Assembly: GCA_013298815.1 (NCBI GenBank)
Contig: JAAFJF010000003.1
Location: 1-64,000 of the forward strand
Reading direction: 5' to 3'
DNA from: Polaromonas sp.
Lineage (GTDB): Bacteria; Pseudomonadota; Gammaproteobacteria; Burkholderiales; Burkholderiaceae_C
DNA length: 64,000 nucleotides
The notes below the pieces were generated by a model that did not search any database, was not told the DNA's origin, and saw only the letters and a program-made list of their open reading frames with translations. Each line of letters begins with the position of its first letter. The stretch's first letter is position 1. Position numbers and translations under genes: made by a program. Shown here in pieces: positions 1 through 56,044 of this stretch.

Positions 1-276
1 CTGTCTTTGAGCTTCAACAACGACGGCCCGCTGGGCACTTTCTTCCGCTACATTGGCGACACCGCGACCTATTTGGCACGTTATGACGACTTGTTTACGG
101 GCAAAGACGAAAAAATCGACGTCAGCCAAGTGGCAGTCTCCATGAACGGCATCGAGCTGCAAGACCGCGAGTTTTTCGCCGCCATCAAAGAAGGCCGCGA
201 GCCGAACTCCAGCGTGGCACAGGTGGTCAATTGCTACAAAGTGTTGGATTCGCTGGAAAAGCAGCTGAATAGCTAA
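1..276 (+). CDS. Gfo/Idh/MocA-family oxidoreductase, C-terminal part
   Basis: The frame is open from the first base of the window, so this is the last 91 codons of a longer gene. The residues (for example VAVSMNGIELQDREFF and the end VVNCYKVLDSLEKQLNS) resemble the C-terminal part of Gfo/Idh/MocA-type NAD(P)-dependent dehydrogenases, which act on sugars and related polyols. The Rossmann fold and the catalytic motif would lie outside the window, so the substrate cannot be judged. It runs in the same direction as secB, 63 bases upstream of it. The assignment rests on general resemblance only; another oxidoreductase family is possible. Confidence 0.55.
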   Translation: MSLSFNNDGPLGTFFRYIGDTATYLARYDDLFTGKDEKIDVSQVAVSMNGIELQDREFFAAIKEGREPNSSVAQVVNCYKVLDSLEKQLNS

Positions 277-339
277 ACCAGAATGGGGTTGCGGGTCTGA
301 GATAATCATTCTTTTTCTCAAATACTTGAAAGCAACCCC

Positions 340-810
340 ATGGCAGACGCAGCGACCCCAGTTACCGAAACAAACGCAGAACCAGTTTTCCAAATCCAGC
401 GCGTTTACCTCAAAGAAGCGTCGTTAGAGCAGCCCAATTCACCGGCTATTTTGTTGGCGCAAGAGCAGCCAGAAGTGAATATTCAGCTCGGTGTGGATGC
501 CACACCAGTGGCTGACGGCGTGTTTGAAGTCACCGTCACCGCGACTGTGCACACCAAAATTGGCGAGAAAACTGTGTTTTTGGTGGAAGCCAAGCAAGCT
601 GGTATTTTCGAGATTCGCAATCTTGCTGCAGAACAAATGGGCCCCATCATGGGCATCACCTGCCCTGCGATTGTGTACCCGTACTTGCGCGGCAACGTGG
701 CAGACCTCGTCTCCCGCGCTGGCTTTCCGCCTGTGCATTTGGCTGAAATCAACTTCCAAGCCATGTACGAGCAGCAGCAAGCGGAACAAGCTGCAACGCC
801 GCTGCAATAA
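340..810 (+). CDS. secB: Protein-export chaperone SecB
   Basis: SecB is the cytoplasmic tetrameric chaperone that keeps precursor proteins unfolded and hands them to SecA at the Sec translocon. The 156-residue length is normal. The core shows the family pattern of alternating strands ([10 protein letters not shown], then [13 protein letters not shown]) followed by the conserved stretch around [23 protein letters not shown], which I recognise from proteobacterial SecB. The N-terminus is Ala/Thr-rich and the C-terminus Gln/Ala-rich, both expected to be disordered. The gene is followed by gpsA, a pairing common in proteobacteria. A dispersed repeat lies between the two genes. Confidence 0.95.
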
Positions 811-842
811 GCTATTTCCAGCGGAATATAGGCATAAATATG

Positions 843-888
843 ACTCTAGCCGGCGTATTTATTGCCTAAGCAGCTATTAAAAGTATAG
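843..888 (+). repeat. Dispersed ~45-bp repeat, copy 1
   Basis: This copy lies 32 bases after the secB stop. It has the core CTAGCCGGCGTATTTATTGC followed by CTAAGCAGCTATT and then AAAAGTATAG, whose ATAG can pair back to the CTAT. It is in the sense direction of the upstream gene, like the other intergenic copies. Confidence 0.85.
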
Positions 889-911
889 TGTAAATACTCT
901 CAAATTACCCC

Positions 912-1952
912 ATGAACATCATCGTTTTAGGCGCAGGCGCATGGGGTACGGCATTGGCGATCAGCGCGGCAAGCAACGCAAAAGCAAAGCATCACGTCAC
1001 TTTATGGTCGCGAGATGCGGCACAGGCTGTGGCCATGCAGTCGCAGCGCTGCAACACCAAGTATTTGCCGCAAGTGGTTTTTCCCGATTCTCTGCAAATC
1101 GCCAGTGGTGATTTCTCAGCCCTCATCAGAACGGCTGATGTGGTCATCATCGGCACGCCGATGTCGGGTTTGCTCGGTATGTTGTTGCAACTGGCAGATG
1201 TAACTTGCCCAGTGGCTTGGCTGTGCAAGGGTTTTGAAGCTGCTGAGAACAACAAAATTGACGGCAAAGTTGGCCTGCTTGGGCATGAAATCTACGCTCA
1301 AATTGCGACAAATCAGTCTAAAACGACGCAAAACATCCTAAAAACCGGAATCTTGAGCGGCCCCAGCTTCGCCCTAGAAGTCGCCAAAGGCCAGCCCACC
1401 GCTTTGGTCGCAGCCAGCGAGTTCCCCGAAGTGCGCGACGCTTTGATTGCCACCTTCCACAGCCCAAGTTTGCGGGTTTATGGCAATGACGATGTTGCTG
1501 GCGTGGAAGTAGGCGGCGCGGTGAAAAACGTCCTAGCCATCGCCACCGGCTTGTGTGACGGCCTGCAGCTAGGCCTAAACGCCCGCGCCGCCCTCATCAC
1601 CCGTGGTTTGGCGGAGGTGACGCGGCTTGGGCTGGTTTTGGGGGCGGATATCGAAACCTTCATGGGTTTGTCCGGCTTGGGCGACTTGGTGCTCACCGCC
1701 ACCGGCGATTTAAGCCGTAACCGCAAAGTTGGCTTGCTCTTAGCCCAAGGCAAAACCCTCTCAGAAGCCGTAGCGTCCCTAGGCCACGTAGCCGAAGGCG
1801 TCTACTGCGCCCGCACCGTAAGCCAACGTGCGCTGTCACTCGGGGTGGATATGCCGATCACGCAGTGTGTGGTGAAGGTGCTGGATGGCACTTTGAGTGC
1901 CAAGCAAGCGGTGGGGTTGTTGATGGGGCGGGATGCTACTGAGGAGCTTTAG
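912..1952 (+). CDS. gpsA: Glycerol-3-phosphate dehydrogenase [NAD(P)+]
   Basis: GpsA reduces dihydroxyacetone phosphate to sn-glycerol 3-phosphate, the backbone of membrane phospholipids, in the cytoplasm. The 346-residue product starts with the dinucleotide-binding motif [14 protein letters not shown] and contains [17 protein letters not shown], the catalytic-lysine segment [17 protein letters not shown], and the C-terminal [18 protein letters not shown] signature. These are hallmarks of the family. It follows secB in the same direction. Its stop codon overlaps the stop of the convergent small gene at 1949 by four bases. Confidence 0.96.
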
Positions 1953-2179
1953 TCTAAGAAATCCCAAGGTATTTCTTTTTTAAACTTAACGATAGCCTCT
2001 TCTAAAAGCGTTAAAGAAATATCATCCTTGTACAAAGTTACAGATTTAGTTTTCTTCGAATCATCTCGAAAAATTTCTAAGATAGTCGTATTGTTTAATA
2101 CCAATTCAAGACCAATGCCATCACGATCACTAGTAACTTCACTAGCTCTCACCCATTTTATTTCCTGAGGTTCGCTCAT
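1949..2179 (-). CDS. Hypothetical 76-residue protein
   Basis: I do not recognise this product. It is a small soluble protein with no signal peptide or membrane segment. The first half reads like a beta-strand protein ([20 protein letters not shown]) and the second half has an acidic helix ending PWDFLD. It is convergent with gpsA and shares four bases with its end; panC starts 34 bases downstream of nothing recognisable. Its lower GC content than gpsA hints at a different origin. It could be an immunity-like or regulatory protein, but nothing in the sequence shows this. The ATG at 2179 is the only good start. Confidence 0.5.
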
Positions 2180-2213
2180 AAGATACTTTTGAATTTGAAT
2201 CTATTTCGCAGCA

Positions 2214-3077
2214 TCAAAACTCCAAATTATCAATCAACCGCGTCTTCCCCAGTTTCGCCGCACCCAGCACCACCAGAGGGTCGCTGCTTTGGCCGCCCAT
2301 GGAGAAGCCTACTTGCGGGGGTTGCAGGTCGGCGCGGCGGCGGACGGTTAGGTAGTCGGGGTGCCAGCCTCTGGCGGTTAGCTGGGCGATGGCTTCAGCT
2401 TCTAGAGCGGCGACGTTGTTGGCGTTTAGGCGGTAGTTTTTGGCCAATTGCTTCAAAGCCAGCGACAACTGAACGGCCTCAATGCGCTCTTCAGCACTCA
2501 AATACCCATTGCGCGAACTCAAAGCCAAGCCGTCGTCTGCTCGCTGGGTTTCGCCGCCAACAATGTCAATCGGCAGCGCAAACTGCTGCACCATGCGCTT
2601 CAAAACCATGAGCTGCTGGTAATCTTTTTTGCCAAACAAAGCAGTGCGTTTGCCTTCAGCCTCTGAAAACACGCAGGTGAACAGCTTCATCACCACCGTG
2701 CTTACGCCGACGAAGAAACCGGGGCGGAAATGGCCTTCCAAGATGTCGGCCACCTCGGTAGGCGGCGAGATTTTGAAAGTTTGCGGCTCGGGGTAGAGCT
2801 CTTTTTCGGTGGGGGCGAAGAGCACGTCGCAGCCGGCCTCAGACAGCTTGTCGTAATCGGCCTGAAAGGTGCGCGGGTAGGTGTCGAAATCTTCATGCGG
2901 GGCAAACTGCAAGCGGTTCACAAAAATGCTGGACACTGTGACATCGCCCAGCGGCTTGGCCTGCTTGATCAGCGCCAAATGCCCCGCATGCAAATTGCCC
3001 ATAGTGGGCACAAACGCGGGGTGTTTGAACTGCGCGAGATGGGTGCGTAAATCTGCAGTGGTGTGGGCTATATACAT
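2214..3077 (-). CDS. panC: Pantothenate synthetase
   Basis: PanC joins D-pantoate and beta-alanine with ATP to make pantothenate, the last step of vitamin B5 synthesis. The 287-residue product has the nucleotidyl-transferase motif [14 protein letters not shown] near residue 25, with the HxGH signature, and later [20 protein letters not shown] and [14 protein letters not shown], the usual KMSKS-like region. Length is typical. Its partner panB lies upstream on the same strand but is separated from it by a toxin-antitoxin pair and two dispersed repeats; panD lies near 9.2 kb. The start at 3077 is an ATG. Confidence 0.95.
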
Positions 3078-3108
3078 GATATTGACATAATTTTTTAGTT
3101 GATTTTCA

Positions 3109-3151
3109 CTATAAATTTAATAGCTGCTCAGACAATGAATACGCCGACTAT
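3109..3151 (-). repeat. Dispersed ~45-bp repeat, copy 2
   Basis: This copy lies 23 bases beyond the stop of the toxin gene. On the minus strand it reads GTCGGCGTATTCATTGTCTG and then AGCAGCTATTAAATTTATAG. It has the same direction as copy 3 on the other side of the toxin-antitoxin pair. Confidence 0.8.
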
Positions 3152-3174
3152 ATACAGAATTTAAGGTCTAAAAT

Positions 3175-3492
3175 CTAGCGCATCAAACGCTGCATTAACA
3201 AGGTTTCTAAGTCGCGGCGCGTATCCACAACCATATAAATATACACGGCATCTGCCCGTGGCTCATAGATAACGCGGTTCATACCCGAGACGATTTGTCT
3301 GTACTGATTCAGGTTTAAGCTCTCCAGTTCAGGTGGCACAGCACCCAAGAGTGGAAATGTCGCCAAATTCCGAATGCTTTCTTTCAGTTTGCTGTACGTT
3401 TTCAGCCACGTAGTTTGCGAAAAGTTTTTAACAACATAACTGCGTAACTCCTTCAAATCCTGCTCAGCCGAGTCAAGAATGACAACCTTCAT
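3175..3492 (-). CDS. RelE/ParE-family toxin
   Basis: Members of this family are either ribosome-dependent mRNA endonucleases (RelE) or gyrase poisons (ParE). The 105-residue product has the family layout: an N-terminal strand (MKVVILDSAEQDLKELRSYV), two helices, a PLLG turn near residue 52, and the C-terminal strands RVIYEPRADAVYIYMVVDTR. Such proteins act in the cytoplasm and are neutralised by the antitoxin encoded just upstream. The start ATG overlaps the stop of that antitoxin (ATGA), the usual translational coupling. I cannot say from sequence whether the target is mRNA or gyrase. Confidence 0.85.
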   Translation of the reverse strand: MKVVILDSAEQDLKELRSYVVKNFSQTTWLKTYSKLKESIRNLATFPLLGAVPPELESLNLNQYRQIVSGMNRVIYEPRADAVYIYMVVDTRRDLETLLMQRLMR

Positions 3493-3782
3493 AGCTGCGT
3501 TTGGTGGTCAATGCTCGTATCTTCTTGCTCTAAACGCGCAAACACGTCTTCAGCGTCTTTGAACTTACCCAATTCAATCTCGCGTTTACCCAGTGCCAAA
3601 ATTTTGAGCAGAGCCAATGTGGCCTCGCGCTCTTCATAAGTTTTAACGTCAATCACCACCAACTTGGCTTCGCCGTTTTGTGTGATCAACAGTGGCTCAC
3701 GGCTTAGCGAAATGTCTTTCACAATCTGCGCTGTGTGGCTTTTCAGATAGCTGATGGGCTTGATGTGGGTGGAGAGTTGCAT
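3489..3782 (-). CDS. Phd/YefM-family antitoxin
   Basis: This is the antitoxin partner of the ParE/RelE-like toxin. The N-terminal half (THIKPISYLKSHTAQIVKDI, then LLITQNGEAKLVVIDVKTYE) matches the Phd/YefM DNA-binding fold. The C-terminal half is the acidic, flexible part that would wrap the toxin. I chose the ATG at 3782 (97 residues) because a GAGG ribosome-binding site lies just upstream; a TTG at 3800 would add six residues. Antitoxins of this family usually repress their own operon, and an inverted repeat lies at 3809-3837. The pair sits between panC and panB. Confidence 0.87.
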   Translation of the reverse strand: MQLSTHIKPISYLKSHTAQIVKDISLSREPLLITQNGEAKLVVIDVKTYEEREATLALLKILALGKREIELGKFKDAEDVFARLEQEDTSIDHQTQL

Positions 3783-3808
3783 GTTGGCCTCAAGTATCAA
3801 TTTGCGAT

Positions 3809-3837
3809 AAGACCAATTTTAGTCTTTATTTGGTCTT
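3809..3837. promoter_or_regulatory. Inverted repeat, candidate operator of the toxin-antitoxin operon
   Basis: AAGACCAA at 3809-3816 is the exact reverse complement of TTGGTCTT at 3830-3837. The half-sites are centred 21 bp apart, two helical turns, and lie 27-55 bases upstream of the antitoxin ATG. Autorepression by Phd/YefM antitoxins at such repeats is known; binding here is inferred. Confidence 0.5.
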
Positions 3838-3868
3838 GCTATGAAACAAATCAATGCAGCGATTTTTA

Positions 3869-3920
3869 CTATGAATTTAATAGCTGCTTAGGCAATAAAT
3901 ACGCTGGGTAGAGGCCTAAA
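3869..3920 (-). repeat. Dispersed ~45-bp repeat, copy 3
   Basis: This copy lies 20 bases beyond the stop of panB. On the minus strand it reads CCCAGCGTATTTATTGCC and then TAAGCAGCTATTAAATTCAT. With copy 2 it brackets the toxin-antitoxin pair as direct repeats. Confidence 0.85.
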
Positions 3921-3940
3921 TAACACCTAAAAAGCATGAA

Positions 3941-4816
3941 TTACCAAGCATGCACCGCATCATCCGGAAAACTGCCCTCTTTCACCGCTTTCACATAGGC
4001 CGCCATCGCCGCTTGCACCCCGCCAGCGCCTTCCATGAAGTTGCGCACAAACTTGGCGTTTTTGCCCAGATTGACGCCCAGCATGTCGTGCATCACCAGC
4101 ACTTGGCCGGCGGTGCCGCTACCTGCGCCTATGCCTATGGTGTGGCAGCGCGGCAGCTCTAAAGTTAACGCGGCAGACAGGGCGGCGGGCACCATTTCTA
4201 GCACCAGCATGGTCGCGCCTGCGTCTTGCAACTCGTGGGCGTGGCGTTTCATGGTGACGGCGGTTTCTTCGGTTTTGCCCTGCACGCGGTAGCCGCCCAA
4301 GGCATGCACGGTTTGCGGCGTTAAACCGAGGTGGGCGCAGACAGGAATGCCACGCTCGACTAAGAACTGCACAATTTCCGCCGTCCAGCCACCGCCTTCT
4401 AATTTGACCATGTGCGAGCCGGCTTGCATCAACTTAGTAGCGCTACGGATGGCTTGCTCTTTGCCTTCGTGGTAGCTGCCAAACGGCATATCGCCCAGCA
4501 CCCAAGCCGTGCCTTGTGCGCGGCGAAGGCCACGGGTGACGCTTTCGACGTGGTAACACATGGTCTCTAAACTCACGCCGACCGTGCTGCTCAGGCCCTG
4601 GCAAACCATGCCCAGCGAATCACCTACCAAAATCGTCTCCACCCCAGCAGCATCGGCCACGGCGGCAAAGGTGGCGTCATAGGCGGTCAGCATGGTGATT
4701 TTTTCGCCGCGTTCGCGCATTTCTTGCAAACGCGGCAGGCTGACGGGGCGGCGCGTGGGCATTTGCGCGGCTGGCGGCAAGGTGCCGTAAGGGGTAACTT
4801 GTGTCGTAATGCTCAT
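3941..4816 (-). CDS. panB: 3-methyl-2-oxobutanoate hydroxymethyltransferase
   Basis: PanB transfers a one-carbon unit from methylene-tetrahydrofolate to alpha-ketoisovalerate, the first committed step towards pantoate. The sequence has [20 protein letters not shown], the metal-site segment [27 protein letters not shown], and MVKLEGGGW, all characteristic of PanB. I chose the ATG at 4816 (291 residues) because GGGAG lies at the right distance; an upstream in-frame extension to 4858 looks non-native. It is transcribed away from nadC, with a 138-base divergent gap. The toxin-antitoxin pair separates it from panC. Confidence 0.95.
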
Positions 4817-4954
4817 AGTGCGCTCCCAGCAAAGTTTGATTTCAAAGCATTTCGCCAATTTAGCTGCGAAAATGCAGAGTCTATTTCATAATTTCGACAA
4901 AACAGACACCACTTGTCCAATATATTGCCTACTTATTGAGTACTAATAGCGAAT

Positions 4955-5821
4955 ATGACACTTTTGAACACAGAATTTACCGCCGAAGCGATCACGGCAC
5001 TCGCCAAAGCCGATGTTGCTCGCGCCTTGTTAGAGGACGTCAATACTGGCGACTTGACCGCCAGCTTGATCGACCCAGCCAAACGCACGACGGCTCGCAT
5101 CTTGGCGCGTGAATCAGCGGTGATTTGTGGCACAGCATGGGCAGAAGCGGCGATTTTGGGCTTAGACCCAACCGCCAAACTGACCTGGCGCGTCAAAGAG
5201 GGCGAGAGCTGCCAAGCCGACCAAACGGTGCTGGACATCGAAGGCTTTGCTGGCAAGCTGCTGACTGCCGAACGCACTGCCCTGAACTTCATGCAAATGA
5301 TGAGCGGCGTGGCGACCAAAACGGCGGTTTACGTGGACATCGTGAAAGGCACTAAGGCAAAAATAGTCGATACCCGCAAAACCTTGCCCGGCCTGCGCAT
5401 GGCGCAAAAATACGCTGTGCTGTGTGGCGGCGGGACGAATCACCGCATCGGGCTGTATGACGCGGTGCTGATCAAAGAAAACCACATCGCCGCAGCGGGC
5501 AGCATTCCTGCCGTGTTGGAACGTGCCGCAAAATTAGCACCTAATGCCAAGTTCATTGAAATTGAAGTGGAGCGTTTGGATCAGCTCACCGAAGCTTTGA
5601 ACACTGGCGCAAAAATGGTTTTGTTGGACAACATGAGCGTACCGAACTTGCATGAGGCAGTCAAGATTAACCAAGGCCGAGCTATCCTAGAAATCTCAGG
5701 CGGCGTGACGCTGAACGGCCTGCGCGAGCTTGCAGAAACAGGCGTTGACCGCATCTCAATAGGCACGCTGACCAAAGACGTAAAAGCGACCGATTTTTCG
5801 ATGCGGTTCGGGGCTTTGTAA
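4955..5821 (+). CDS. nadC: Nicotinate-nucleotide pyrophosphorylase (carboxylating)
   Basis: NadC (quinolinate phosphoribosyltransferase) converts quinolinate and PRPP to nicotinate mononucleotide in de novo NAD synthesis. The 288-residue product shows [20 protein letters not shown], the PRPP and quinolinate-binding segments [20 protein letters not shown] and [19 protein letters not shown], and the C-terminal barrel motif [13 protein letters not shown]. nadA follows 25 bases downstream in the same direction, so the two should be cotranscribed. nadB lies 10 kb away on the other strand. Confidence 0.96.
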
Positions 5822-5846
5822 GCGCACTTTTCAGAAAGTTATAAAC

Positions 5847-6965
5847 ATGACCACATCCGTTTTGAAACGCATCGACAAAGTCAATGTCGAGTATGACCAA
5901 CCCGCCTGCCCGACCCAAAGCGTCTGGGTGAAAGTGCCCGCCGAGCCGTTGCCGAACGAACGCATTGAGCTGAAAGCCCGCATCAAGCGCCTACTCAAAG
6001 AGCGCAACGCGGTGATGGTGTCGCATTACTACGTTCACCCCGATTTGCAGGATTTAGCCGAAGAAACGGGCGGCATCGTCAGCGATTCGCTTGAGATGGC
6101 GCGCTTTGGCCGTGACCACGCGGCGCAAACGTTGGTCGTCTCTGGTGTGCGCTTCATGGGTGAGACAGCGAAGATTTTGTCGCCTGAAAAGACGATTTTG
6201 ATGCCCGAACTAGAAGCCACCTGCTCGCTAGATTTGGGCTGCCCGATTGACGATTTCAGCGCCTTTTGCGACCAACACCCTGACCGCACCGTCGTCGTCT
6301 ACGCCAACACCAGCGCGGCGGTGAAGGCGCGTTCGGACTGGCTGGTGACGTCCAGCTGCGCTTTGGACATCGTTAAAGCCCTGAAAGACAAAGGCCAAAA
6401 AATCCTCTGGGCACCGGACAAACACTTGGGCGGCTACATCCAGCGCGAAACCGGCGCAGACATGGTGATGTGGAACGGCGCTTGCATCGTGCATGACGAG
6501 TTCAAAGCGGCAGAACTCGAGGCTTTGATGAAAGATCACCCAAAAGCCAAAGTCTTGGTACACCCCGAATCTCCCGCAGCCGTGGTTGCCTTGGCCGACG
6601 CTGTGGGCTCGACCTCCGCCATTTTGAAAGCCGCGCGCGAGATGGACGCCAAAGAATTCATCGTCGCGACCGACAACGGCATGATGCACAAGCTGCGCAC
6701 GCAAAACCCAGGCAAAATCTTCTTGGAAGCACCCACAGCTGGCAACAGCGCCACCTGCAAAAGCTGCGCCCACTGCCCATGGATGGCGATGAACGGCTTG
6801 GCCGCGTTGGCGCATGTGCTGGAAACCAACACGAATCAAATCCACATCGACCCCACCCTAGGCGTCCGCGCTCGTCTGCCGATTGACCGCATGCTCGCCT
6901 TTACCGCCGCGCTGCGCAATGGGCAGCCGACGAATCATTTGGTGCCGCATATTGGGGCGGCATAA
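5847..6965 (+). CDS. nadA: Quinolinate synthase
   Basis: NadA condenses iminoaspartate, made by NadB, with dihydroxyacetone phosphate to give quinolinate, using one [4Fe-4S] cluster. The 372-residue product has [39 protein letters not shown], and the cluster cysteines in [14 protein letters not shown], in [11 protein letters not shown], and in the C-terminal [14 protein letters not shown]. It forms an operon with nadC. queE begins 18 bases downstream in the same direction, so a NAD-queuosine transcript is possible. Confidence 0.95.
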
Positions 6966-6983
6966 CCGTGCTATCTTGAATAA

Positions 6984-7658
6984 ATGACATATTCAGTCAA
7001 AGAAATCTTTTACACCCTGCAAGGCGAAGGCGGCAATGCGGGGCGGCCTGCTGTGTTTTGCCGGTTTTCGGGGTGCAACCTGTGGAGTGGACGCGAGCAA
7101 GACCGTGCGAGTGCTGTTTGCCAGTTTTGTGATACCAAGTTTGTCGGAACGAATGGGACGCTGGGTGGAAAATACGCTACAGCAGAGAAACTGGCACTGA
7201 AAATTGCTTCACTTTGGCCGCAAGCCAACAACAATGACCGATTTGTTGTTCTCACCGGTGGAGAACCTTTGCTACAAGTCGATGAAATGCTCTTGGAAGC
7301 CTTGCACGCGCAGGGCTTCACCATCGCGGTGGAAAGCAACGGTACGGTCAAAGCGCCCAAAGGCATAGATTGGCTGTGCATTAGCCCCAAAGCGGGAGCG
7401 GCAGGTGTGGATTGGGTGCAAAAAAGCGGGCAAGAGCTGAAAGTCGTCTGGCCTCAAGTTGGGTTTACAAAAGCTGATTTAGATACTTTTGCAAATTCAG
7501 CTGAATTGCATTTTGATACTAAATATATATCGCCCTTAGACGATATTACTGGTAATCTTTTGCACAAAGATAATATCAAAGCCTGCATTCAAATGTGCCT
7601 AGATAATCCTGCGTGGAAACTCAGCCTGCAAACGCACAAAATAACTGGAATACGATGA
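6984..7658 (+). CDS. queE: 7-carboxy-7-deazaguanine synthase
   Basis: QueE is a radical-SAM enzyme that turns 6-carboxy-tetrahydropterin into 7-carboxy-7-deazaguanine on the way to queuosine in tRNA. The 224-residue product begins YSVKEIFYTLQGEGGNAGRP and has the proteobacterial form of the radical-SAM cysteines, CNLWSGREQDRASAVCQFC, in which the usual CxxxCxxC is widened by an insert. VLTGGEPLLQVDEML is the SAM-binding glycine motif. Its stop overlaps the start of queD (ATGA), so the two are translationally coupled. queC and queF are not in the window. Confidence 0.93.
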   Translation: MTYSVKEIFYTLQGEGGNAGRPAVFCRFSGCNLWSGREQDRASAVCQFCDTKFVGTNGTLGGKYATAEKLALKIASLWPQANNNDRFVVLTGGEPLLQVDEMLLEALHAQGFTIAVESNGTVKAPKGIDWLCISPKAGAAGVDWVQKSGQELKVVWPQVGFTKADLDTFANSAELHFDTKYISPLDDITGNLLHKDNIKACIQMCLDNPAWKLSLQTHKITGIR

Positions 7659-8041
7659 ATATCGCCCATAAACATTCCTTTGAAGTCAGTCAAAGCTTCT
7701 ATTTTGACGCAGCCCATAGGCTGAACCGTGAGATAGAAATTGAAGGCAGTCGTCGTATTCATGGCCATACCTATTTGGCAGAAGTGGCTGTGCGTAGTGC
7801 AGTAAATAACAATACCGGCATGGTGATGGATATTGGTTTGATACGAATAGAAGTCGCCAAAGTTCGCGAGTTACTAGATCACCATTATCTCGACGAAGTG
7901 CCAGATTTGGGGATTCCCACGCTAGAAAACCTGTGTATCTATATTGAAAAAGCCATGCGAGTTAATGGTTTACAACTGTCCCGCGTATCCGTTTGGCGCG
8001 AATCCTTGGGTGACAGGTGCGATATGGCTGTTGCTATTTAA
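7655..8041 (+). CDS. queD: 6-carboxy-tetrahydropterin synthase family protein (QueD-like)
   Basis: QueD makes 6-carboxy-tetrahydropterin from dihydroneopterin triphosphate, the substrate of QueE. The 128-residue product has the three zinc-binding histidines (FYFDAAHRL and RRIHGHTY) and the catalytic Asp-His region ELLDHHYLDEVPDL. The catalytic cysteine, normally four residues before HGH, is replaced by serine (EGSRRIHGH); the only cysteines are near residues 95 and 123. The start at 7655 is set by the ATGA overlap with queE. Pairing with queE argues for a role in the pathway, but activity is uncertain. It could be a divergent PTPS-family enzyme. Confidence 0.85.
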   Translation: MNIAHKHSFEVSQSFYFDAAHRLNREIEIEGSRRIHGHTYLAEVAVRSAVNNNTGMVMDIGLIRIEVAKVRELLDHHYLDEVPDLGIPTLENLCIYIEKAMRVNGLQLSRVSVWRESLGDRCDMAVAI

Positions 8042-9438: not shown

Positions 9439-9449
9439 GGTGAGAGCTG

Positions 9450-11006
9450 TCAATAAAGAGTAGATTTTGGCAGTTTTGGGGCGATGATACGCGTTTTTAC
9501 ATCATCAATCGCTTGTTTTAACGCCATGATAGCCGCTTCTGGCGACGCTGCGGCGGTGATGGCGCTGATAACGGCGACGCCGGCTGCGCCAGCCTGTCGC
9601 GCTTCTGAAGCCCGCTCCACGTTGATACCGCCAATCGCGACCAAGGGCAACGGCAACAAGGCGCTCCAATACGAAACGTTGTGCGCGCCCTGCGGCTGCC
9701 ACGGCATGTCTTTGGACTGCGTGGCGTACATGGGGCCGCAGGCGATATAGCTGGGTTGCAGCGCCCAGGCGCGGCAAACTTCCCAGTAGCAATGCGTGCT
9801 CAGCCCCAAACGCAGACCGGCTTGGGCGATGGCTTGCAAATCTGCCACATGCAAATCTTCTTGTCCTAAATGCACACCGTAAGCGCCTTCTTCAATCGCC
9901 AATTGCCAGTGGTCGTTAATGAAAAGCTGGGCATTGGCTGCTTTGGCATGTTGAATAGCCAATTGCACTTCACGCCTGATGTCTACCAGTTCAGGTGATT
10001 TGATGCGTAATTGCACAGTTTTAACGCCAGAAGCCAACACGCGTTGTACCCAAGCTGCGCTGTCTACCACAGCGTACAAGCCTTGGTCGGTATCGCTCAA
10101 AGCCGTGAAACGTAGAGACGATATTTGCGCGGAATCTCTGGGCAAGCTGAAAGTCGGCAGGTTTTCAATGTGCTGGGCAAAATCTGGCTGCGGACGCACC
10201 GGGCCTGCGCCCTGCCCCGCTGCGTAGGCGTGGCGCAAGGCGTGTGTGGTCGCCATCTTCGCGATAACCAGCGCTTCCATGCTGACAAAACCACGCGCCA
10301 TGGCGGCAGCGACGGTGGATGCAAACACGCAGCCTGTGCCGTGGTTATGCGCTGTCGCCACGCGCGGCAAGCGCAGCCAGCCCTGGGCATGTGGGCTGAG
10401 GCAATAGTCTTCGCTGTTCAAACCCTGAGCATCGCCACCGGTGATGATGACGGTTTTGCAGCCCAAAGCTTGCAGGGATTGCGAAGCTTGCTCGACGGCC
10501 AAAGCGTCACTCAAAGGGGCTTGCTTCAAGAGCAACGCAGCTTCAACACGGTTTGGGGTGATCACATCAGCTCGCGGCAATAATTCGTCGCGGTAGGCTT
10601 GAATCAAATCCGCTTGGGCGAAGCTGGCCCCCGTCGTCGCACCTAAAACAGTGTCAACGACAACGGTCAACTGTGGATTATTCTGTCGCAAACGGTCAAT
10701 CCATCGCACCAGCACCCGCAAGTTATCCACGCTGCCTATCATGCCGACTTTGATGGCGGCAGGCGGCATGTCGTCTGCCAGCGCGGCTAACTGCGCTTCA
10801 AAAACGGCTGCATCCACAGGCGCAATCAGCTGCACGCCCTTAGAATTTTGCGCGGTGATGGCGGCTACGACGGTGCAGCCATGCACGTCCATCGCCTCAA
10901 AAGCACGCAAATCGGCTTGCAAACCCGCGCCTGCGCCGGAGTCTGAGCCAGCGACCGACCACACGATGGGGGGATTAGAAGGAAAGTTTTTAATGGCGGT
11001 GCTCAT
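9450..11006 (-). CDS. thiDE: Bifunctional HMP-phosphate kinase / thiamine-phosphate synthase (ThiD-ThiE fusion)
   Basis: The 518-residue protein joins two thiamine enzymes. Residues about 12-270 are ThiD ([47 protein letters not shown]), which phosphorylates the pyrimidine HMP twice. Residues about 300-505 are ThiE ([48 protein letters not shown]), which joins pyrimidine and thiazole phosphates. ThiE motifs are slightly divergent (QLRIKSPE for the usual QLRxKD). Its start overlaps the thiG stop. Fused ThiD and ThiE domains are known in bacteria; here the fusion completes a compact set thiC-O-S-G-DE. Confidence 0.93.
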
Positions 11007-11824
11007 AAAACAAAGGGCTGCCCCGTCACGGGTGTGGTCGCAACGGCCATGTCTTGCTTGGCCATCACGCCCGCCTCGTAGCCGAGTCTGCCCGCCTCAA
11101 TCGCCAGCTTGAAGGCTCTAGCCATGACGACAGGATCGTGCGCCAGCGCCACTGCGGAATTGAGCAGCACGGCATCAAAACCTAGCTCCATCGCTTGGCT
11201 TGCGTCGGAGGGTGAACCGATGCCTGCATCAACGACCAAAGTCACATCAGGCAAGCGCGAACGCAAGGTACGCAAGGCATACGGGTTGATGAGCCCTTGC
11301 CCTGAGCCAATGGGTGACCCCCACGGCATGAGGATACGGCAGCCCACGTCTAGCAAGCGCTGGCAACTGACCAAATCGTCCGTGCAATACGGGAAAACTT
11401 CAAAACCGTCTTTGGTGAGTATCTCTGCCGCCGTGACGAGCTCGAACGGGTCGGGTTGCAGCGTGTACTCGTCACCCACCACTTCTAGCTTGATCCAGTT
11501 TGTACCAAACACCTCACGCGCCATCTGCGCCAAAGTGACGGCTTCGCGTGCCGTGCGGCAGCCAGCGGTGTTGGGTAAGAGGCGTGCGCCGCTGGCTTTG
11601 ATTTGCGAGTAAAAATCATTCGAAGCTGCGCCATCTGCACCTTGGGAGAGTTGGCGCTTCAAGCTAACCGTGACGACCTCTGCGCCAGATGCAGCAATCG
11701 CATCAGACAGCACTTGCGGCGAAGGATAGAGCGCTGTGCCGATGAAGAAGCGGCTGGTGAGCTCTACACCTGCTAGTTTTAGACCTACTGGTTTTAGTTT
11801 GGATTGATTCTTCATATTGGTCAT
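11003..11824 (-). CDS. thiG: Thiazole synthase
   Basis: ThiG forms the thiazole phosphate ring from deoxyxylulose 5-phosphate, the ThiS thiocarboxylate and dehydroglycine. The barrel shows [20 protein letters not shown], the Schiff-base lysine in [30 protein letters not shown], and the phosphate-binding [18 protein letters not shown] and [14 protein letters not shown] chose the ATG at 11824 (273 residues), 25 bases after thiS; the open frame runs upstream through thiS but that part is only a shadow of it. A second ATG three codons on is also possible. Confidence 0.95.
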
Positions 11825-11849
11825 ATCAGTCACCCGCTTAATCACTCGA

Positions 11850-12059
11850 TTAACCACCCGTGATAGGTTGAAAGGTCGTGATGGCGTCGCCGTGCACCAA
11901 GATGCGTGCAGCGCGTTCATCACGGGGAACAAAATGTTGATTGATCGCAGTCGCCAAGCTTTGCGGGGTAGCCCCGAGCGAGGCGATGAGCTCTGCAAGG
12001 CTTATTCCCACTGGCTCAGTACGGGCTTCGCCATTGAGCGTGATTGAGATTGTGCTCAT
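11850..12059 (-). CDS. thiS: Sulfur carrier protein ThiS
   Basis: ThiS is a ubiquitin-like carrier whose C-terminal Gly-Gly is converted to a thiocarboxylate that donates sulfur to the thiazole ring. The product is 69 residues, ends in FQPITGG as required, and has the beta-grasp pattern [12 protein letters not shown] near the start and [11 protein letters not shown] near the end. Its start overlaps the stop of thiO by four bases (ATGA). ThiF, the adenylating partner, is not in the window. Confidence 0.94.
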
Positions 12060-13096
12060 AGCGCCTCCAATGCCTGCGCCACTAGCGCTGGCGCAATGAG
12101 CCAGCCGTGGCGAAAGAGACCGTTGATACGCGTGATGCCGTCTTGCGACTCCAAGCGCGGCAAGTTATCCAACAGCGCAGGACGCAAATTCGTCTCGCTA
12201 TGGATGATGCGTGCTTCGGCCAGCTCGGGAATCACACTGTGCGCAGCAGCGAGTAGCTCGACCGTGCTGCGCAGCGAGATAGGTGAACGGTCTTCGCTCT
12301 CGATTTCGCTTGCGCCTACGACGATGCGATTACTGTCCCTTGGTACGAGGTACACGCGGTGGCGGGGATGAAGCAAGCGAATCGGGCGCTGAAGTTCTAC
12401 ATTTGGCGCGTGTAGCCAAAAGATTTCGCCGCGCACGCCACGCACTTGCAGATCAGGCTTCGCACCTGTGCCGCGCACATCGAAGACCCAATCGAATTGA
12501 AAGTCTTGCTTTGTAGTTTTGATAACACCTTGCGAAAGCGAAGTGACTGATTCATTCCAAAGCCAAGTCACCCCAAGCGTTGTTGCCGCCACCGTCATGG
12601 CCGTCATGGCTTGTACGGCGTCGATTTGCCCTTCATGCGGCAACAGCCATGCCGAGCCTGATGTGTGAATGGCTGGCTCGGCGCTGCGCAAAGCCTCACT
12701 GGACATGGCCTGCGGCGCATGTTCTGCGTAGTGGCTAGGGGTTTTGTGCGCCAGCAAATCAATCATGCGCTTGGCTGCGCCTTCGTCGCCTTTGTGTGCC
12801 AGCAGCAAGCTGCCCATCTGTTTGAACATCACGGGATGCGAGGGAGCAATATCTTGTAACTCTGAGACGATGCCTTGCCACAACGCGAGCGAACACACGC
12901 CTTGCTCGAACACCGAAAGGTTGGCTGTCTCTAGTTCTGCCATCGGCGAAAGCATGCCCGCTGCCGTCCAGCCCGCAGCTACTCTATGCTCTGGGCCATT
13001 GGCAGGATCAAAGACAGTGACTTTGTTCCCCGCGCGCGCAAGCTGAAGCGCCAGCAAGCGCCCCAGCAATCCAGCACCTGCAATGCCAATTTTCAT
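12056..13096 (-). CDS. thiO: FAD-dependent glycine oxidase
   Basis: ThiO oxidises glycine to the imine that ThiG needs, the aerobic alternative to ThiH. The 346-residue product starts with the FAD-binding motif IGIAGAGLLGRLLALQLARA and ends with TRINGLFRHGWLIAPALV, the C-terminal part of the FAD site in this oxidase family. It is the second gene of the string, 59 bases after thiC and overlapping thiS. Presence of ThiO suggests oxygen-dependent thiazole synthesis. Confidence 0.9.
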   Translation of the reverse strand: MKIGIAGAGLLGRLLALQLARAGNKVTVFDPANGPEHRVAAGWTAAGMLSPMAELETANLSVFEQGVCSLALWQGIVSELQDIAPSHPVMFKQMGSLLLAHKGDEGAAKRMIDLLAHKTPSHYAEHAPQAMSSEALRSAEPAIHTSGSAWLLPHEGQIDAVQAMTAMTVAATTLGVTWLWNESVTSLSQGVIKTTKQDFQFDWVFDVRGTGAKPDLQVRGVRGEIFWLHAPNVELQRPIRLLHPRHRVYLVPRDSNRIVVGASEIESEDRSPISLRSTVELLAAAHSVIPELAEARIIHSETNLRPALLDNLPRLESQDGITRINGLFRHGWLIAPALVAQALEAL

Positions 13097-13155
13097 GACT
13101 CCGACAAGCTCAGTCCGAACGGTTGGGCGCTCAAACAGTTCATTTTCAAACTGCG

Positions 13156-15250
<2,095 letters not shown>

Positions 15251-15254
15251 GAAG

Positions 15255-16847
15255 TTAGTGTAACTCTTTTTCTCTTGAATCCAGAATCGTGGGTTTAGCG
15301 ACAGGCAACATGTCGGGGTAATCGCGGCTGAAATGCAAGCCCCTGCTTTCTCGGCGACGCAATGCAGACTGAACAATCAGATCAGCCACTTCGACCAAGT
15401 TACGCAGCTCCAGCAAGTCGCGGGTAACGTGAAAGCGGGCGTAAAACTCTTGAATTTCAGCTTTCAACAGGTCAATGCGGTGTGCAGCGCGCTCTAGGCG
15501 CTTGTTGGTGCGGACAATGCCCACGTAGTCCCACATGAAGCGGCGCAGCTCAGCCCAGTTGTGCGAAACAACGACGAGCTCATCAGGGTCAGTAACTCGG
15601 CTGTCGTCCCACGCACGCAGTTGTCTTGGTGCGAGTTTTGTATCAGATTTTATAGCACCAGCGGCTGATTTAGCAAAAACCATGCACTCGACCAAGGAAT
15701 TGCTCGCCAAACGGTTTGCTCCATGCAAGCCGGTATAGGTGGTCTCGCCAATCGCGAACAGGCCAGCAACGTCTGTATGACCTTGCAAATCTGTCATCAC
15801 GCCGCCGCAGGTGTAATGCGCTGCGGGCACGACGGGAATGGGTTCTTTGGTAATGTCTATGCCCAACTCCAAGCATTTGGCTTTGATGTTAGGAAAATGC
15901 TCTTGCAAGAATTCAGGTGTTTTGTGCGAGATATCGAGGTAAACGCAATCGACGCCATGTTTTTTCATCTCAAAGTCAATCGCACGCGCGACCACATCGC
16001 GCGGGGCGAGTTCTAGACGCGGGTCGTGATCGGGCATAAAACGCTTGCCACCGGCTTCTTTGGGCAGAAGTAAGTGCCCACCCTCACCACGAACGGCTTC
16101 TGTGATCAAAAAACTTTTGGCATGCGGATGGTACAAACAGGTGGGGTGAAACTGGATGAACTCCATATTCGCCACGCGGCAGCCAGCGCGCCAGGCAGCT
16201 GCAATGCCGTCGCCGGTGGCGGTGTCTGGGTTGGTCGTGTACAAATACACTTTGCCTGCACCGCCAGTGGCCAAAATGGTGTGGGGGGCGGAAAAGCTGA
16301 CGACTTTGTCTTCTATTTGGTCCAAAACGTAAGCGCCCAGGCATCGTTTTTCAATAGCGTTTGTGGCACGGCTGGTAATCAAGTCAACCAGCATGTGTTG
16401 CTCAAACACGGTGATGTTGGGTGTTTCTTTCACGCGTTGCACCAGCACTTTTTGTACGGCTGCTCCAGTGGCATCTGTGACATGGACGATGCGACGCTCG
16501 CTATGACCACCTTCGCGGGTGAGATGGACGTGGCCATCTTCTTGGGTGAATTCCACCCCCAGTTGCTGCAGCCACTGCACAGCTTCGGGCGCGTGCTCGA
16601 CGGTGAACATCGTCGCGTCTAAATCACACAAACCCGCGCCAGCGACCAAGGTGTCTTCCACATGCGATTGGATGGTGTCGCCCTCGCCCAACACAGCGGC
16701 AATACCGCCCTGCGCCCATGCGCTGGAGCCATCGCCCAGCACGTTTTTGGTAATCACCGCGACACGATGTGTGGGGGCTAAATGCAACGCAGCGGACAAA
16801 CCCGCCAAGCCGCTGCCGATGATGATGACGTCGAATTGTTGGGTCAT
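15255..16847 (-). CDS. nadB: L-aspartate oxidase
   Basis: NadB oxidises L-aspartate to iminoaspartate, the substrate of NadA. The 530-residue flavoprotein has [18 protein letters not shown], the FAD segment [19 protein letters not shown], the active-site region [28 protein letters not shown] and [16 protein letters not shown], then a C-terminal helical domain. It lies upstream of thiC on the same strand and nothing that looks like a terminator separates them, so thiC may be partly read from here. A weak relative of the dispersed repeat encodes AAGAIKS near residue 395, just after the FAD domain. Confidence 0.95.
15641..15671 (-). repeat. Possible degenerate copy of the dispersed repeat inside nadB (copy 8)
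   Basis: On the minus strand GGTGCTATAAAATCTGATA resembles the 3' half of the repeat (GCAGCTATAAAATCAGTAGC in the metG copy) and is read in the same frame (GAIKS against AAIKS). The 5' half is not recognisable. This is a weak call. Confidence 0.3.
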
Positions 16848-19475: not shown

Positions 19476-21683
19476 TTACTTCACCCGCATGCCCGGCAAA
19501 GCGCCAGCCATGGGCTCTAAAACATAAATCCCCGGCTGCGCTTTCTCGTCAGCCGCGCTGGCTGCCAAAACCATACCTTCTGACATGCCAAACTTCATCT
19601 TGCGCGGCGCAAGGTTGGCAACCATCACGGTGTGTTTACCAATCAAATCTACTGGCGCGTAGCTGCTGGCGATGCCGCTGAAGACATTGCGAGTTTTCGG
19701 TTGCCCTGCATCGTCCACCTCGCCCACGTCCAGCGTCAAACGCAGCAGCTTGGTGCTGCCTTCAACCGCTTCGCAGTTGACGATTTTGGCAATCCGCAGG
19801 TCGATTTTGGCGAAATCGTCGATGGTGATGATCTCTGATCGGGCGTCATCAACTGCTTTTGGCGTATTTTTTGCTACTGATTTTATAGCTGCTTGAGCAG
19901 TTAATGCGCTGGCTTCAGGCATATTTGGCACTTCAAATAGGGCATCCAATTGCTTTACATCAACGCGCTGCATCAAATGTACGTAATCGCCAATGACATG
20001 CCCCGCACCCAGCTGCGCTGCGGCATCTTGGATGGTGAACGGAGTGGTTTTTAAGAACTGTTCCACGCCAGCGGCAAGTTGCGGTAAGACGGGTTTGAGG
20101 TAGATCGTGAGCAACCTGAAAGCTTCGATGCACACCGTACAAACGTCATGCAAACGGGCTTCCATGCCTTCTTTTTTGGTCAATTCCCAGGGTTTGTTGG
20201 CATCTACGTACGCATTGACCACATCCGCCATTAGCATCGTCTCACGCATTGCTCTACCAAAATCACGATTTTCATACAGTAACTGCATGTTGTCTTTTTG
20301 CGAGCTAATGAGATTTATCACTGGTTGACCATCTTCTGAAATGACACCCAGCTTGTTGTCGAATTTTTTAGCTAAGAACCCAGCCGCTCTACTGGCGATG
20401 TTGACGAATTTTCCAATCAAATCACTGTTCACCCGTGCCATAAAGTCATCTGCATTGAAGTCAATATCTTCATTGCGTGCCGACAACTTGGCGGCTAGGT
20501 AGTAGCGCAACCACTCAGGATTCATGCCTAAACTCAAATATTTGAGCGGATCCAACCCCGTCCCACGGCTTTTACTCATTTTTTCACCGTTGTTGACCGT
20601 CAAAAAGCCGTGGACGAACACATTGGTTGGCGCTTTACGGCCGCTGAAGTGCAGCATGGCGGGCCAGAACAGCGTGTGGAAGGTGACGATGTCTTTGCCG
20701 ATGAAGTGGTATTGCTCGGTATCGGCAGCAGCCATGTACTCATCAAAACTGCGAGTATCGGGATTTATCTTCCGATTCTTGGGGCCGCCTTTGTCAAACC
20801 AATTTTTGAGCGATGCTAAATAGCCCACCGGTGCATCTAGCCAGACGTAGAAGTATTTGCCCGGTGCATCAGGAATTTCAATGCCAAAGTACGGCGCGTC
20901 GCGGGAAATGTCCCAATCGCCCAAACCTTCTGACGTTGTGCCATCAGGGTTGGTACGGACGGAGAACCATTCTTTGACCTTGTTGGCGACTTCGGGTTGT
21001 AAGCGCGGTTTGCCGTTTTCATCAACACCTTGTGTCCAATCTTCCAAATACTTAACGCAACGCGGGTCGGACAATTTGAAGAAGAAATGCTCAGAGTTTT
21101 TGAGTTCAGGCCGTGCACCTGAAAGGGTTGAAAACGGATTAATCAGATCGGTCGGAGCGTAAACAGCACCGCAGTTTTCACAGTTATCGCCATACTGGTC
21201 TTTGGTGTGGCACTTGGGGCACTCGCCTTTGATGTAGCGGTCGGGCAGGAACATGTTTTTCTCAGGGTCGAAAAACTGCTCAATGGTTTTGGTTTCTATC
21301 AGTGAACCACCTTTTTCAGCAGGCAAATCACGTAAATCTTTGTAGATTTGGCGTGCTAACTCGTGATTTTCTGGCGCATCGGTGCTGTGCCAGTTGTCGA
21401 AACTGATGTGAAAGCCGTCTAAATACTGCTTTCGACCCGCTGCAATGTCTGCCACAAACTGCTGCGGCGTTTTGCCTGCTTTTTCAGCGGCAATCATGAT
21501 AGGAGCACCGTGGGTGTCGTCCGCACCTACAAAATTGACCTCATTGCCCTGCATCCGCTGGAACCGCACCCAAATATCAGCCTGGATGTACTCCATGATG
21601 TGGCCGATGTGGAACTTGCCATTGGCGTATGGCAGTGCGGTGGTGACGAAAAGTTGGCGCGAAGCCATTTGGTTTGCAGTCAT
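19476..21683 (-). CDS. metG: Methionyl-tRNA synthetase
   Basis: MetG charges tRNA-Met and initiator tRNA. The 735-residue product has the HIGH motif ([14 protein letters not shown]), a zinc knuckle ([17 protein letters not shown]), and KMSKS ([11 protein letters not shown]). It also has the anticodon-binding helices and a C-terminal OB-fold tRNA-binding domain ([19 protein letters not shown]). The linker between anticodon and OB domains, about residues 587-603, is encoded by a copy of the dispersed repeat and reads [14 protein letters not shown]. apbC is divergent, 119 bases away. The first ATG at 21683 was kept; the ATG at 21668 is nearly as likely. Confidence 0.96.
19874..19922 (-). repeat. 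Dispersed ~45-bp repeat, copy 7, inside metG
   Basis: On the minus strand the segment reads GCCAGCGCATTAACTGCTCA and then AGCAGCTATAAAATCAGTAGC minus a few variable bases. It is in frame with metG and encodes an Ala-rich linker. Where nearly all intergenic copies have a stop codon (usually TAA), this copy has CAA. Confidence 0.75.
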
Positions 21684-32126: not shown

Positions 32127-32762
32127 ATGGCAACAAAAAACGAATCCCTCCTCGCAGAGCAGCTCACCAGCACACTGGATGAAGAAACTGCCAGATCTGA
32201 AATATATGGACTACTAGCCGGCGTATTATATAAATCACCAGCTATTGAATTAATAGCTCAAATACGTGTAGCAGCGACAGACACACCGGCTGCAGGTGCA
32301 TTTTTAGAAGAGCCTTGGCGCAACTTCGTCGGCGTGACTCGGTCCATGTCAGACCAAGCCATCAAGAACGAGTATGAAGCACTTTTTGGCGGTGTCGGTA
32401 AGCCTGAAATTTACTTGTACGGCTCGCATTATTTGAGCGGTTTTTTGAACGAAAAACCCTTAGCAAGATTACGCACAGATTTGAACAGCCTGGGGCTAGA
32501 ACGTTCTGAAGTGATGTCAGACACGGAAGACCATTTTGCGTATCTATGCGAAGTGATGCGCTATTTGATTGCAGGTGACGATGTTGTTGTCGCTAACTTA
32601 ACGCGTCAACGTGAATTTTTCTCAACGCATATTCAGCCATGGGTAAATTTGATGTGTGACGACATTCAAAGCAATAACAAGGCAAACTTTTACGCTTCAT
32701 TAGCGGAGCTGATTCGTGCATTCATGGGTATAGAAGCACAGGGTTTTGACATGCTTGTGTAA
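32127..32762 (+). CDS. TorD/DmsD-family molecular chaperone
   Basis: Chaperones of this family bind Tat signals of molybdoenzymes and hold the apoenzyme until the cofactor is in place. The 211-residue product has an all-helical TorD pattern with EYEALFGGVGKPEIYLYGSH near residue 80 and MSDTEDHFAYLCEVMRYLI near residue 130, the conserved DHxxxxxxxM region. It precedes the Tat-dependent FdhA, its likely client. The ATG at 32127 and a GTG at 32121 are both possible starts. Residues about 30-44 (LAGVLYKSPAIELIA) are encoded by a copy of the dispersed repeat. Confidence 0.88.
   Translation: MATKNESLLAEQLTSTLDEETARSEIYGLLAGVLYKSPAIELIAQIRVAATDTPAAGAFLEEPWRNFVGVTRSMSDQAIKNEYEALFGGVGKPEIYLYGSHYLSGFLNEKPLARLRTDLNSLGLERSEVMSDTEDHFAYLCEVMRYLIAGDDVVVANLTRQREFFSTHIQPWVNLMCDDIQSNNKANFYASLAELIRAFMGIEAQGFDMLV
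32214..32258 (+). repeat. Dispersed ~45-bp repeat, copy 10, inside torD-like gene
   Basis: CTAGCCGGCGTATT (identical over 14 bases to copy 1) is followed by ATATAAATCACC and AGCTATTGAATTAATAGC. It is in the same frame as the metG and fdsGB copies, and TCA stands where intergenic copies usually have TAA. Length of the protein region is normal for the family, so the sequence has been fitted to it. Confidence 0.65.
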
Positions 32763-55898: not shown

Positions 55899-55918
55899 CC
55901 GAAATAATCCATTCGAAC

Positions 55919-55945
55919 CGTCATTCCCGCGAAGGCTGGAATCCA
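55919..55945. repeat. Single copy of a TCATTCCCGCGAAGG-type element
   Basis: CGTCATTCCCGCGAAGG-CTGGAATCCA resembles a short dispersed element that I know from several proteobacterial genomes, where CCCGC pairs with GCGGG. Here the second arm is altered (GCTGG). Only one copy was seen. Confidence 0.4.
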
Positions 55946-55946
55946 C

Positions 55947-55982
55947 AAGCGCCTCAAACAGTGATATGTGAGGCGCTTTTTA
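55947..55982 (+). terminator. Rho-independent terminator of the acyl-CoA reductase gene
   Basis: AAGCGCCTCA and TGAGGCGCTT form a perfect 10-bp stem around a 12-base loop, followed by a T-run, 49 bases after the stop codon. Confidence 0.88.
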
Positions 55983-55985
55983 ATT

Positions 55986-56035
55986 GCTATTTAATTTATA
56001 GCTCCTTAGGCAATAAATACGCCGGCTAAAGGCAT
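55986..56035 (-). repeat. Dispersed ~45-bp repeat, copy 14
   Basis: On the minus strand it reads TAGCCGGCGTATTTATTGCC and then TAAGGAGCTATAAATTAAAT. It lies nine bases beyond the stop of tag and is in the sense direction of that gene. Confidence 0.85.
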
Positions 56036-56044
56036 ATTTAAAGG

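What the first reader, a model, noticed from the sequence alone, without database searches (positions are those of the whole stretch)
3109..3920. Toxin-antitoxin cassette between panC and panB bracketed by direct repeats
panB and panC are usually neighbours. Here a ParE/Phd-like pair sits between them, with same-direction repeat copies at 3109-3151 and 3869-3920. Recombination between such copies could gain or lose the cassette. The position may also tie an essential vitamin pathway to the module.
Basis: partly seen in the sequence, partly recalled or inferred. Interest (0 to 1): 0.6.

Follow-up and report, generated by a model that had tools for sequence, protein, structure and literature searches.

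The report
Toxin-antitoxin cassette at a repeat-marked site
A small toxin-antitoxin gene pair sits between two vitamin B5 genes in this bacterium; two close relatives have the same spot empty with one DNA repeat instead of two, and similar two-repeats-versus-one differences recur elsewhere in the genome, so a scattered repeat seems to mark where genes come and go.

Summary
A ParE-type toxin (3175-3492, -) and a Phd/YefM antitoxin (3489-3782, -) lie between panB and panC, with direct repeats 760 bp apart. The repeats are not a private pair: they belong to a ~62-nt dispersed family (13 strong copies in the window; at least 150, the scoring cap, in each of four congeneric genomes). None of the three carries the toxin, and none of 98 other loci (96 distinct) showing both genes has the module. 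Beyond the finding: in ~358 kb aligned between this genome and congener G003, 8 of 29 length differences of 200 bp or more are bracketed by two direct copies with a same-direction copy at the shorter site (expected 2.4-3.2), none by inverted copies; in an added 127-kb region 5 of 12. The other 21 of 29 are not. Recombination at the repeats is inferred, not shown: L and R share at most 15 identical bases in a row. A tie to pantothenate synthesis has no support. The module is ordinary; the repeat-bounded gene turnover is the interesting part.

The parts
3103..3165 (+). L copy of the dispersed ~62-nt repeat, 13 nt past the toxin stop, on the panC side
   Evidence: model R1, 55.1 bits, E 3.5e-16; direct repeat 3101-3144; placement
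3175..3492 (-). ParE-type toxin, 105 aa
   Evidence: Pfam ParE_toxin 3.4e-11; profile of 21 sequences matches solved ParE and PfiT toxins; NCBIfam none
3489..3782 (-). Phd/YefM antitoxin, 97 aa from ATG (ORF listed from a TTG at 3800); overlaps the toxin start by 4 bp
   Evidence: Pfam PhdYeFM 3.3e-14; TIGR01552; PDB PfiA 6.2e-11; start codon
3808..3837 (-). operator-like site with inverted arms AAGACCAA/TTGGTCTT, 25 nt before the antitoxin ATG
   Evidence: 19-21 of 30 positions shared with the upstream region of 3 of 5 closest homologues (0-1 of 1000 shuffles reach this); 13 and 16 of 30 in the other two
3863..3924 (+). R copy of the dispersed repeat, 19 nt past the panB stop
   Evidence: model R1, 64.3 bits; its right flank matches that of the single copy in G003
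2214..3077 (-). panC, pantoate-beta-alanine ligase
   Evidence: Pfam 3.9e-87
3941..4816 (-). panB, ketopantoate hydroxymethyltransferase (291 aa from ATG; ORF listed to 4858)
   Evidence: Pfam 1.9e-100; start codon

Best explanation
A type II toxin-antitoxin module (ParE-type toxin, Phd/YefM antitoxin, operator-like site) entered the panB-panC junction in this lineage. The junction already held one copy of a dispersed genus repeat. The module now lies between two direct copies, like several other gene differences in this genus, so the repeat is best read as a preferred boundary for gain and loss of small gene cassettes, most simply by homologous or homology-assisted recombination. Shown: the protein families, the repeat family, the single-copy empty site in two congeners, toxin absence from three congeners, and an excess of direct bracketing. 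Inferred: gain rather than loss, the recombination mechanism, and that the pair is an active toxin and antitoxin.
For: Families. Toxin in 1 of 4 genus genomes. Empty sites with one copy in G003 and G002. Insert equals one repeat spacing. Composition: module 46.7% G+C, panC 56.8%, panB 60.4%, whole window 51%. Over ~358 kb, 8 of 29 length differences are direct-bracketed with a same-direction copy at the short site and 0 of 29 inverted; expected direct 2.4-3.2, P 0.001-0.009. Permuting copies among intergenic gaps gives mean 0.52, maximum 3 in 1000 runs. Region D alone: 5 of 12, P 0.002-0.005. At one site G000 holds a glyoxalase-family gene and G003 a BrnA antitoxin with a RelE-like ORF (RelE match below cut-off) plus a further segment, between the same bounding copies.
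Against: 21 of 29 length differences are not direct-bracketed. Empty sites alone are only weakly enriched for a copy (6 of 12 against 29% of intergenic gaps of 60 bp or more, P 0.10; against 17.5% of all gaps, P 0.01). L and R share at most 15 identical bases in a row. The single copies are not clean L/R chimeras: for the module the 5' half is nearer R (28/31 against 24/31) and the 3' half undecided (R 23/31, L 19/25); left flanks are nearer L in 5 of 8 events. 21 of 23 projectable copies are at the same place in G000 and G003, so most copies are static. The operator match fails in 2 of 5 homologues. The 29 other-genus toxin loci searched carry no copy. In one of the 8 bracketed events the short site holds a different gene (487 bp), and in another it has two copies against three.
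Confidence: 0.6

Rival explanations
1. Coincidence of placement: the repeat commonly follows gene ends, so panB and the toxin each have their own 3' copy; the module came by an unrelated route and the repeats took no part.
For: 24 of 31 intergenic copies face a gene's 3' end; 29% of intergenic gaps of 60 bp or more hold a copy.
Against: Direct bracketing exceeds a null built from random native gene segments, which have the same placement habit (8 against 2.4-3.2), and no bracketing is inverted at that window size (0 of 29; 1 of 29 with a 150-bp window).
Confidence: 0.25
2. Ancestral module lost in relatives by recombination between the copies.
For: Direct repeats plus a single-copy product is also what deletion gives.
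Against: All three congeners held lack the toxin and none of 98 other loci with both genes has the module, so loss needs several events; the module's lower G+C fits arrival from outside, though the window average is only 51%.
Confidence: 0.1
3. Site-specific, integron-like insertion of gene-plus-3'-repeat cassettes by a recombinase.
For: A gene followed by an element in fixed orientation is integron-like; in one event (region D, 106935) the single copy is nearer R in both halves while its left flank is nearer L, as if cassette plus new copy were added at the edge; G002 carries an integron integrase over cut-off.
Against: G000, G003 and G001 have no integron integrase over cut-off; no supported fold in the repeat (3 pairs); copies are dispersed.
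Confidence: 0.05
4. The module is selected at this spot because it couples to pantothenate synthesis (panC read-through or addiction).
For: All genes are co-directional, panB-antitoxin-toxin-panC.
Against: Absent from all 98 other loci with both genes; one congener has a nucleosidase gene there instead.
Confidence: 0.03

Closest known systems
Minimal mobile elements of Neisseria (Saunders and Snyder 2002, as defined in PMC3898611 and PMC3082526, passages read)
   Same: Different whole-gene cassettes, or none, between two conserved genes in related genomes
   Different: Here the cassette ends carry copies of one dispersed repeat; incorporation by homologous recombination was not shown
Neisseria dRS3 / NIME repeats (PMC3898611, passages read)
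   Same: Hundreds of copies; proposed as integration or deletion points (for example around pilC1)
   Different: dRS3 is 20 bp with ATTCCC inverted ends; the repeat here is ~62 nt without them and no dRS3-like site lies at L or R
PfiT/PfiA of Pseudomonas phage Pf4 (PMC13048266, passages read; PDB 9w3a)
   Same: ParE/RelE-superfamily toxin; the antitoxin here matches PfiA and the toxin profile matches PfiT
   Different: The near neighbours here are housekeeping genes (no prophage search made). PfiT has a C-terminal extension; the profile match stops at residue 107 of its 115, so the extension is probably lacking here, not tested by structure
BRE, beta-proteobacterial repeat element (PMC3110155, passages and section 14 read)
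   Same: Dispersed betaproteobacterial repeat, usually intergenic, some copies inside genes, reported in Polaromonas
   Different: BRE ~90 bp, 69% G+C in Bordetella, some in tandem; here ~62 nt, 35% G+C in the 67-nt alignment. Sequences were not compared

Membership tests
ParE/RelE toxin superfamily | Match to the family profile over the domain | tested here: met
   Pfam ParE_toxin 44 bits, cut-off 23, residues 4-94; profile match to PDB 3kxe and 9w3a. NCBIfam none; single-sequence PDB search none
ParE/RelE toxin superfamily | Gyrase inhibition or growth arrest | not testable with these tools
   needs expression
Phd/YefM antitoxins | Match to family profile | tested here: met
   Pfam PF02604 52.8 bits (cut-off 29.8); TIGR01552 23.4 bits (cut-off 20.8)
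classical parDE | ParD-family antitoxin | tested here: not met
   The only antitoxin family matched is Phd/YefM
type II toxin-antitoxin operon | Antitoxin upstream, genes overlapping, conserved pairing | tested here: met
   4-bp overlap; an antitoxin homologue lies beside the toxin in all 29 other-genus toxin loci fetched, the best-scoring ones
type II toxin-antitoxin operon | Autoregulatory operator | tested here: inconclusive
   Inverted-arm site similar in 3 of 5 homologues; binding not tested
minimal mobile element | Different whole-gene cassettes between two conserved genes | tested here: met
   panB-panC: module (G000), nucleosidase gene (G001), nothing but the repeat (G002, G003)
minimal mobile element | Incorporated solely by homologous recombination | not testable with these tools
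   No clean chimera seen
Neisseria dRS3 | ATTCCC-N8-GGGAAT | tested here: not met
   One 1-mismatch site in the window (expected 0.09), at 55923-55942, not at L or R; it lies about 40 bp before another repeat copy
integron cassette | Integron integrase in the genome | tested here: not met
   No match over cut-off in G000, G003 or G001; one in G002. Weaker matches ring in all 14 control genomes too
BRE repeat | ~90 bp and high G+C | tested here: not met
   ~62 nt, 35% G+C; BRE sequence not available for alignment

The most novel reading that the evidence does not exclude
A ~62-nt dispersed repeat, placed mostly at gene 3' ends and with relatives in other genera of its family, works as a genome-wide exchange site: gene-plus-repeat cassettes (toxin-antitoxin modules, metabolic genes) enter and leave beside existing copies, with no integron array and no known recombinase, and this accounts for a large share of recent gene turnover.
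Probability: 0.3. Interest if true: 0.75.

Novelty: new variant of a known kind. Interest (0 to 1): 0.5.

Why it matters
How small accessory modules such as toxin-antitoxin pairs move without transposases is an open question. If one short dispersed repeat marks the ends of about a quarter of gene-content changes between two species, gene flow in this group becomes partly predictable from sequence and testable with simple excision and exchange assays.

Tried and rejected
RNA structure in the repeat: 3 predicted pairs, covariation term near zero; no Rfam family in window 1-8000. Chimera test at eight events (seven of the eight bracketed ones plus one equal-length site): left flank nearer L in 5 of 8, right flank nearer R in 8 of 8 (weakly in two), repeat halves do not switch cleanly. 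Projection of the 30 G000 copies onto a G001 stretch found none; not used further. Promoter and terminator scans of 2900-5000: 2 and 2 sites against 2.0 and 3.2 in shuffles, so no weight given. Plasmid and phage origin: toxin homologues in 114 plasmid records and 1 phage record, all under 60% identity, so no close donor. First enrichment tests used regions A-C, of which B and C were picked because copies cluster there: 6 of 12 empty sites with a copy (P 0.01-0.10) and 4 of 24 differences bracketed (P 0.0003-0.06 depending on the null); region D was then added. The definition of an event was made after seeing region A. Structure prediction was not run.

Papers: the listings showed no account of this repeat or of repeat-bounded toxin-antitoxin cassettes in this group; the library holds open-licence papers only. 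Opened: PMC3110155 (passages and section 14), PMC13048266, PMC3898611 and PMC3082526 (passages).

Full report
What is there. The toxin (3175-3492, -) and antitoxin (3489-3782, -) pass Pfam cut-offs as ParE_toxin and PhdYeFM_antitox; the antitoxin also passes TIGR01552, while NCBIfam has no family for the toxin. The antitoxin's best solved relative is PfiA (E 6e-11); a profile of 21 toxin sequences matches ParE 3kxe and PfiT 9w3a, although the single toxin sequence matches nothing in the PDB at E 0.01. The antitoxin is not matched as ParD, so this is not classical parDE. An operator-like inverted site lies 25 nt before the antitoxin ATG and resembles the upstream region of 3 of 5 close homologues.

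The repeats. L and R are 44 nt at 89% identity, 48 of 68 over a longer stretch, longest identical run 15. They belong to a dispersed family: 9 core matches in the window against 0.10 expected, 45 exact 13-mers in the genome against 0 control, 13 model hits at E<1e-7 in 64 kb, and at least 150 hits (the scoring cap) in each of G000-G003. A shared core pattern is found in 17 of 60 genomes, G000 among them; three of the 17 have only 1-3 hits, near the control level, and congener G001 has none. Of 45 exact-core copies, 31 are intergenic and 14 lie in ORFs; 24 of the 31 have their 3' side facing a gene's 3' end (ORFs called by length only). L and R follow that habit.

Empty site. The toxin is in 1 of 4 genus genomes and in 50 of 399 family genomes, G000 included, at 57% identity or less outside G000. 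G003 and G002 have panB-panC 106 and 115 bp apart with one repeat copy; G001 has one copy beside panC and a 5'-methylthioadenosine/S-adenosylhomocysteine nucleosidase gene next to panB. L034 holds the same sequence as the G001 locus and is labelled an uncultured Polaromonas MAG. Of 111 loci outside G000 show both genes (96 distinct) and none has the module. G000 and G003 differ by 845 against 84 bp and the two alignments overlap by 46 bp within the repeat. The left flank of the G003 copy matches L's flank (42/58 against 20/59 for R) and the right flank R's (53/59 against 28/60 for L); within the repeat the 5' half is nearer R and the 3' half undecided.

Is it general? I aligned four stretches of G000 and G003, 358 kb of chained G000 sequence (A 119, B 48, C 64, D 127 kb). 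A contains the finding; B and C were chosen because copies cluster there; D was chosen around a single repeat locus. Of 29 length differences of at least 200 bp, 8 are bracketed by two direct copies in the longer genome with at least one copy of the same direction at the shorter site; none is bracketed by inverted copies. In six of the eight the shorter site is under 100 bp; in one it holds a different gene and in one it has two copies against three. Random native gene segments of like length predict 2.4-3.2 (P 0.001-0.009); D alone gives 5 of 12 against 0.96-1.29 (P 0.002-0.005); B, C and D without A give 6 of 23 (P 0.009-0.036). Permuting copies among intergenic gaps gives a mean of 0.52 and at most 3 in 1000 runs, and with a 150-bp window 9 direct and 1 inverted are seen against 0.64 each; this control is weaker because it breaks clustering and placement. 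The remaining 21 of 29 are not so bracketed. Eight events is a small number and the event definition was made after seeing region A.

Cargo. Bracketed cargo, besides the module, includes an enoyl-CoA hydratase-like gene with two small genes (one is DUF1801), a DUF4287 gene, a BrnA antitoxin with a RelE-like ORF (below the RelE cut-off), a malate/L-lactate dehydrogenase gene with a neighbour, and a 5.9-kb oxidoreductase-like block (names without a Pfam call are read from sequence). A further site, with segments of similar length and so outside the 29, holds a BrnA-type ORF with a weak BrnT part in G000 and a BrnT/CopG-type pair in G003.

How it works. Most likely a toxin-antitoxin module of different composition (46.7% G+C against 57-60% for panC and panB and 51% for the window) was acquired at a junction that already carried one repeat copy, and the second copy came with it or arose at insertion. 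Homologous recombination between donor and resident copies is the simplest route, but short identity and the absence of a clean chimera leave illegitimate or enzyme-driven insertion open. No integron integrase passes cut-off in G000 or G003. What the module does for the cell is unknown; addiction or phage response would be inference from the families.

Known or new. The module is a new member of a known kind. Variable cassettes between conserved genes are known as minimal mobile elements, and dispersed repeats as possible exchange points are known as dRS3/NIME in Neisseria (PMC3898611 passages). The repeat differs from dRS3 and, by size and composition, from BRE (PMC3110155 section 14). I found no description of it, within an open-licence library only. 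I file the whole as a new variant of a known kind.

Noticed in passing
L146, L159, L160, L162, L165, L170, L171, L173; window 19870-19930, 24587-24648, 32203-32260: Repeat copies inside genes keep one open frame: 9 of 10 same-strand exact-core copies read like LIAAQAVNTPA. In PepA and MetG they lie between annotated domains; in PepA the four congeners share the peptide, while 9 of 10 readable rows from other genera are four residues shorter there. Resembles the in-frame palindromic elements of Rickettsia (recalled).
   Followed up: partly
L006 774-1535 (G001): MTA/SAH nucleosidase gene directly after panB at the same junction in another congener.
   Followed up: partly
window 9442-15305: 5.9-kb block absent from G003, which has 127 bp and one repeat copy there; no copies near its ends in G000.
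   Followed up: no
window 1949-2179: 76-aa ORF between gpsA and panC, in a 255-bp stretch against 11 bp in G003; no Pfam or NCBIfam family.
   Followed up: no
L151 3262-3328: A second dispersed element, matching both strands at many places in the congeners, so probably palindromic.
   Followed up: no
L294 (G002:C32:2-772): Integron integrase over the family cut-off, starting at the contig end, in one congener only.
   Followed up: no
G000:C1 about 114.9-116.5 kb (region D 54934-56528): Both flanks of a 1.5-kb insert carry similar ~115-nt stretches (hairpin-like sequence plus repeat), slightly more alike (98/115) than either is to the congener's copy (92 and 91 of 115), as if the site was duplicated at insertion.
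   Followed up: partly
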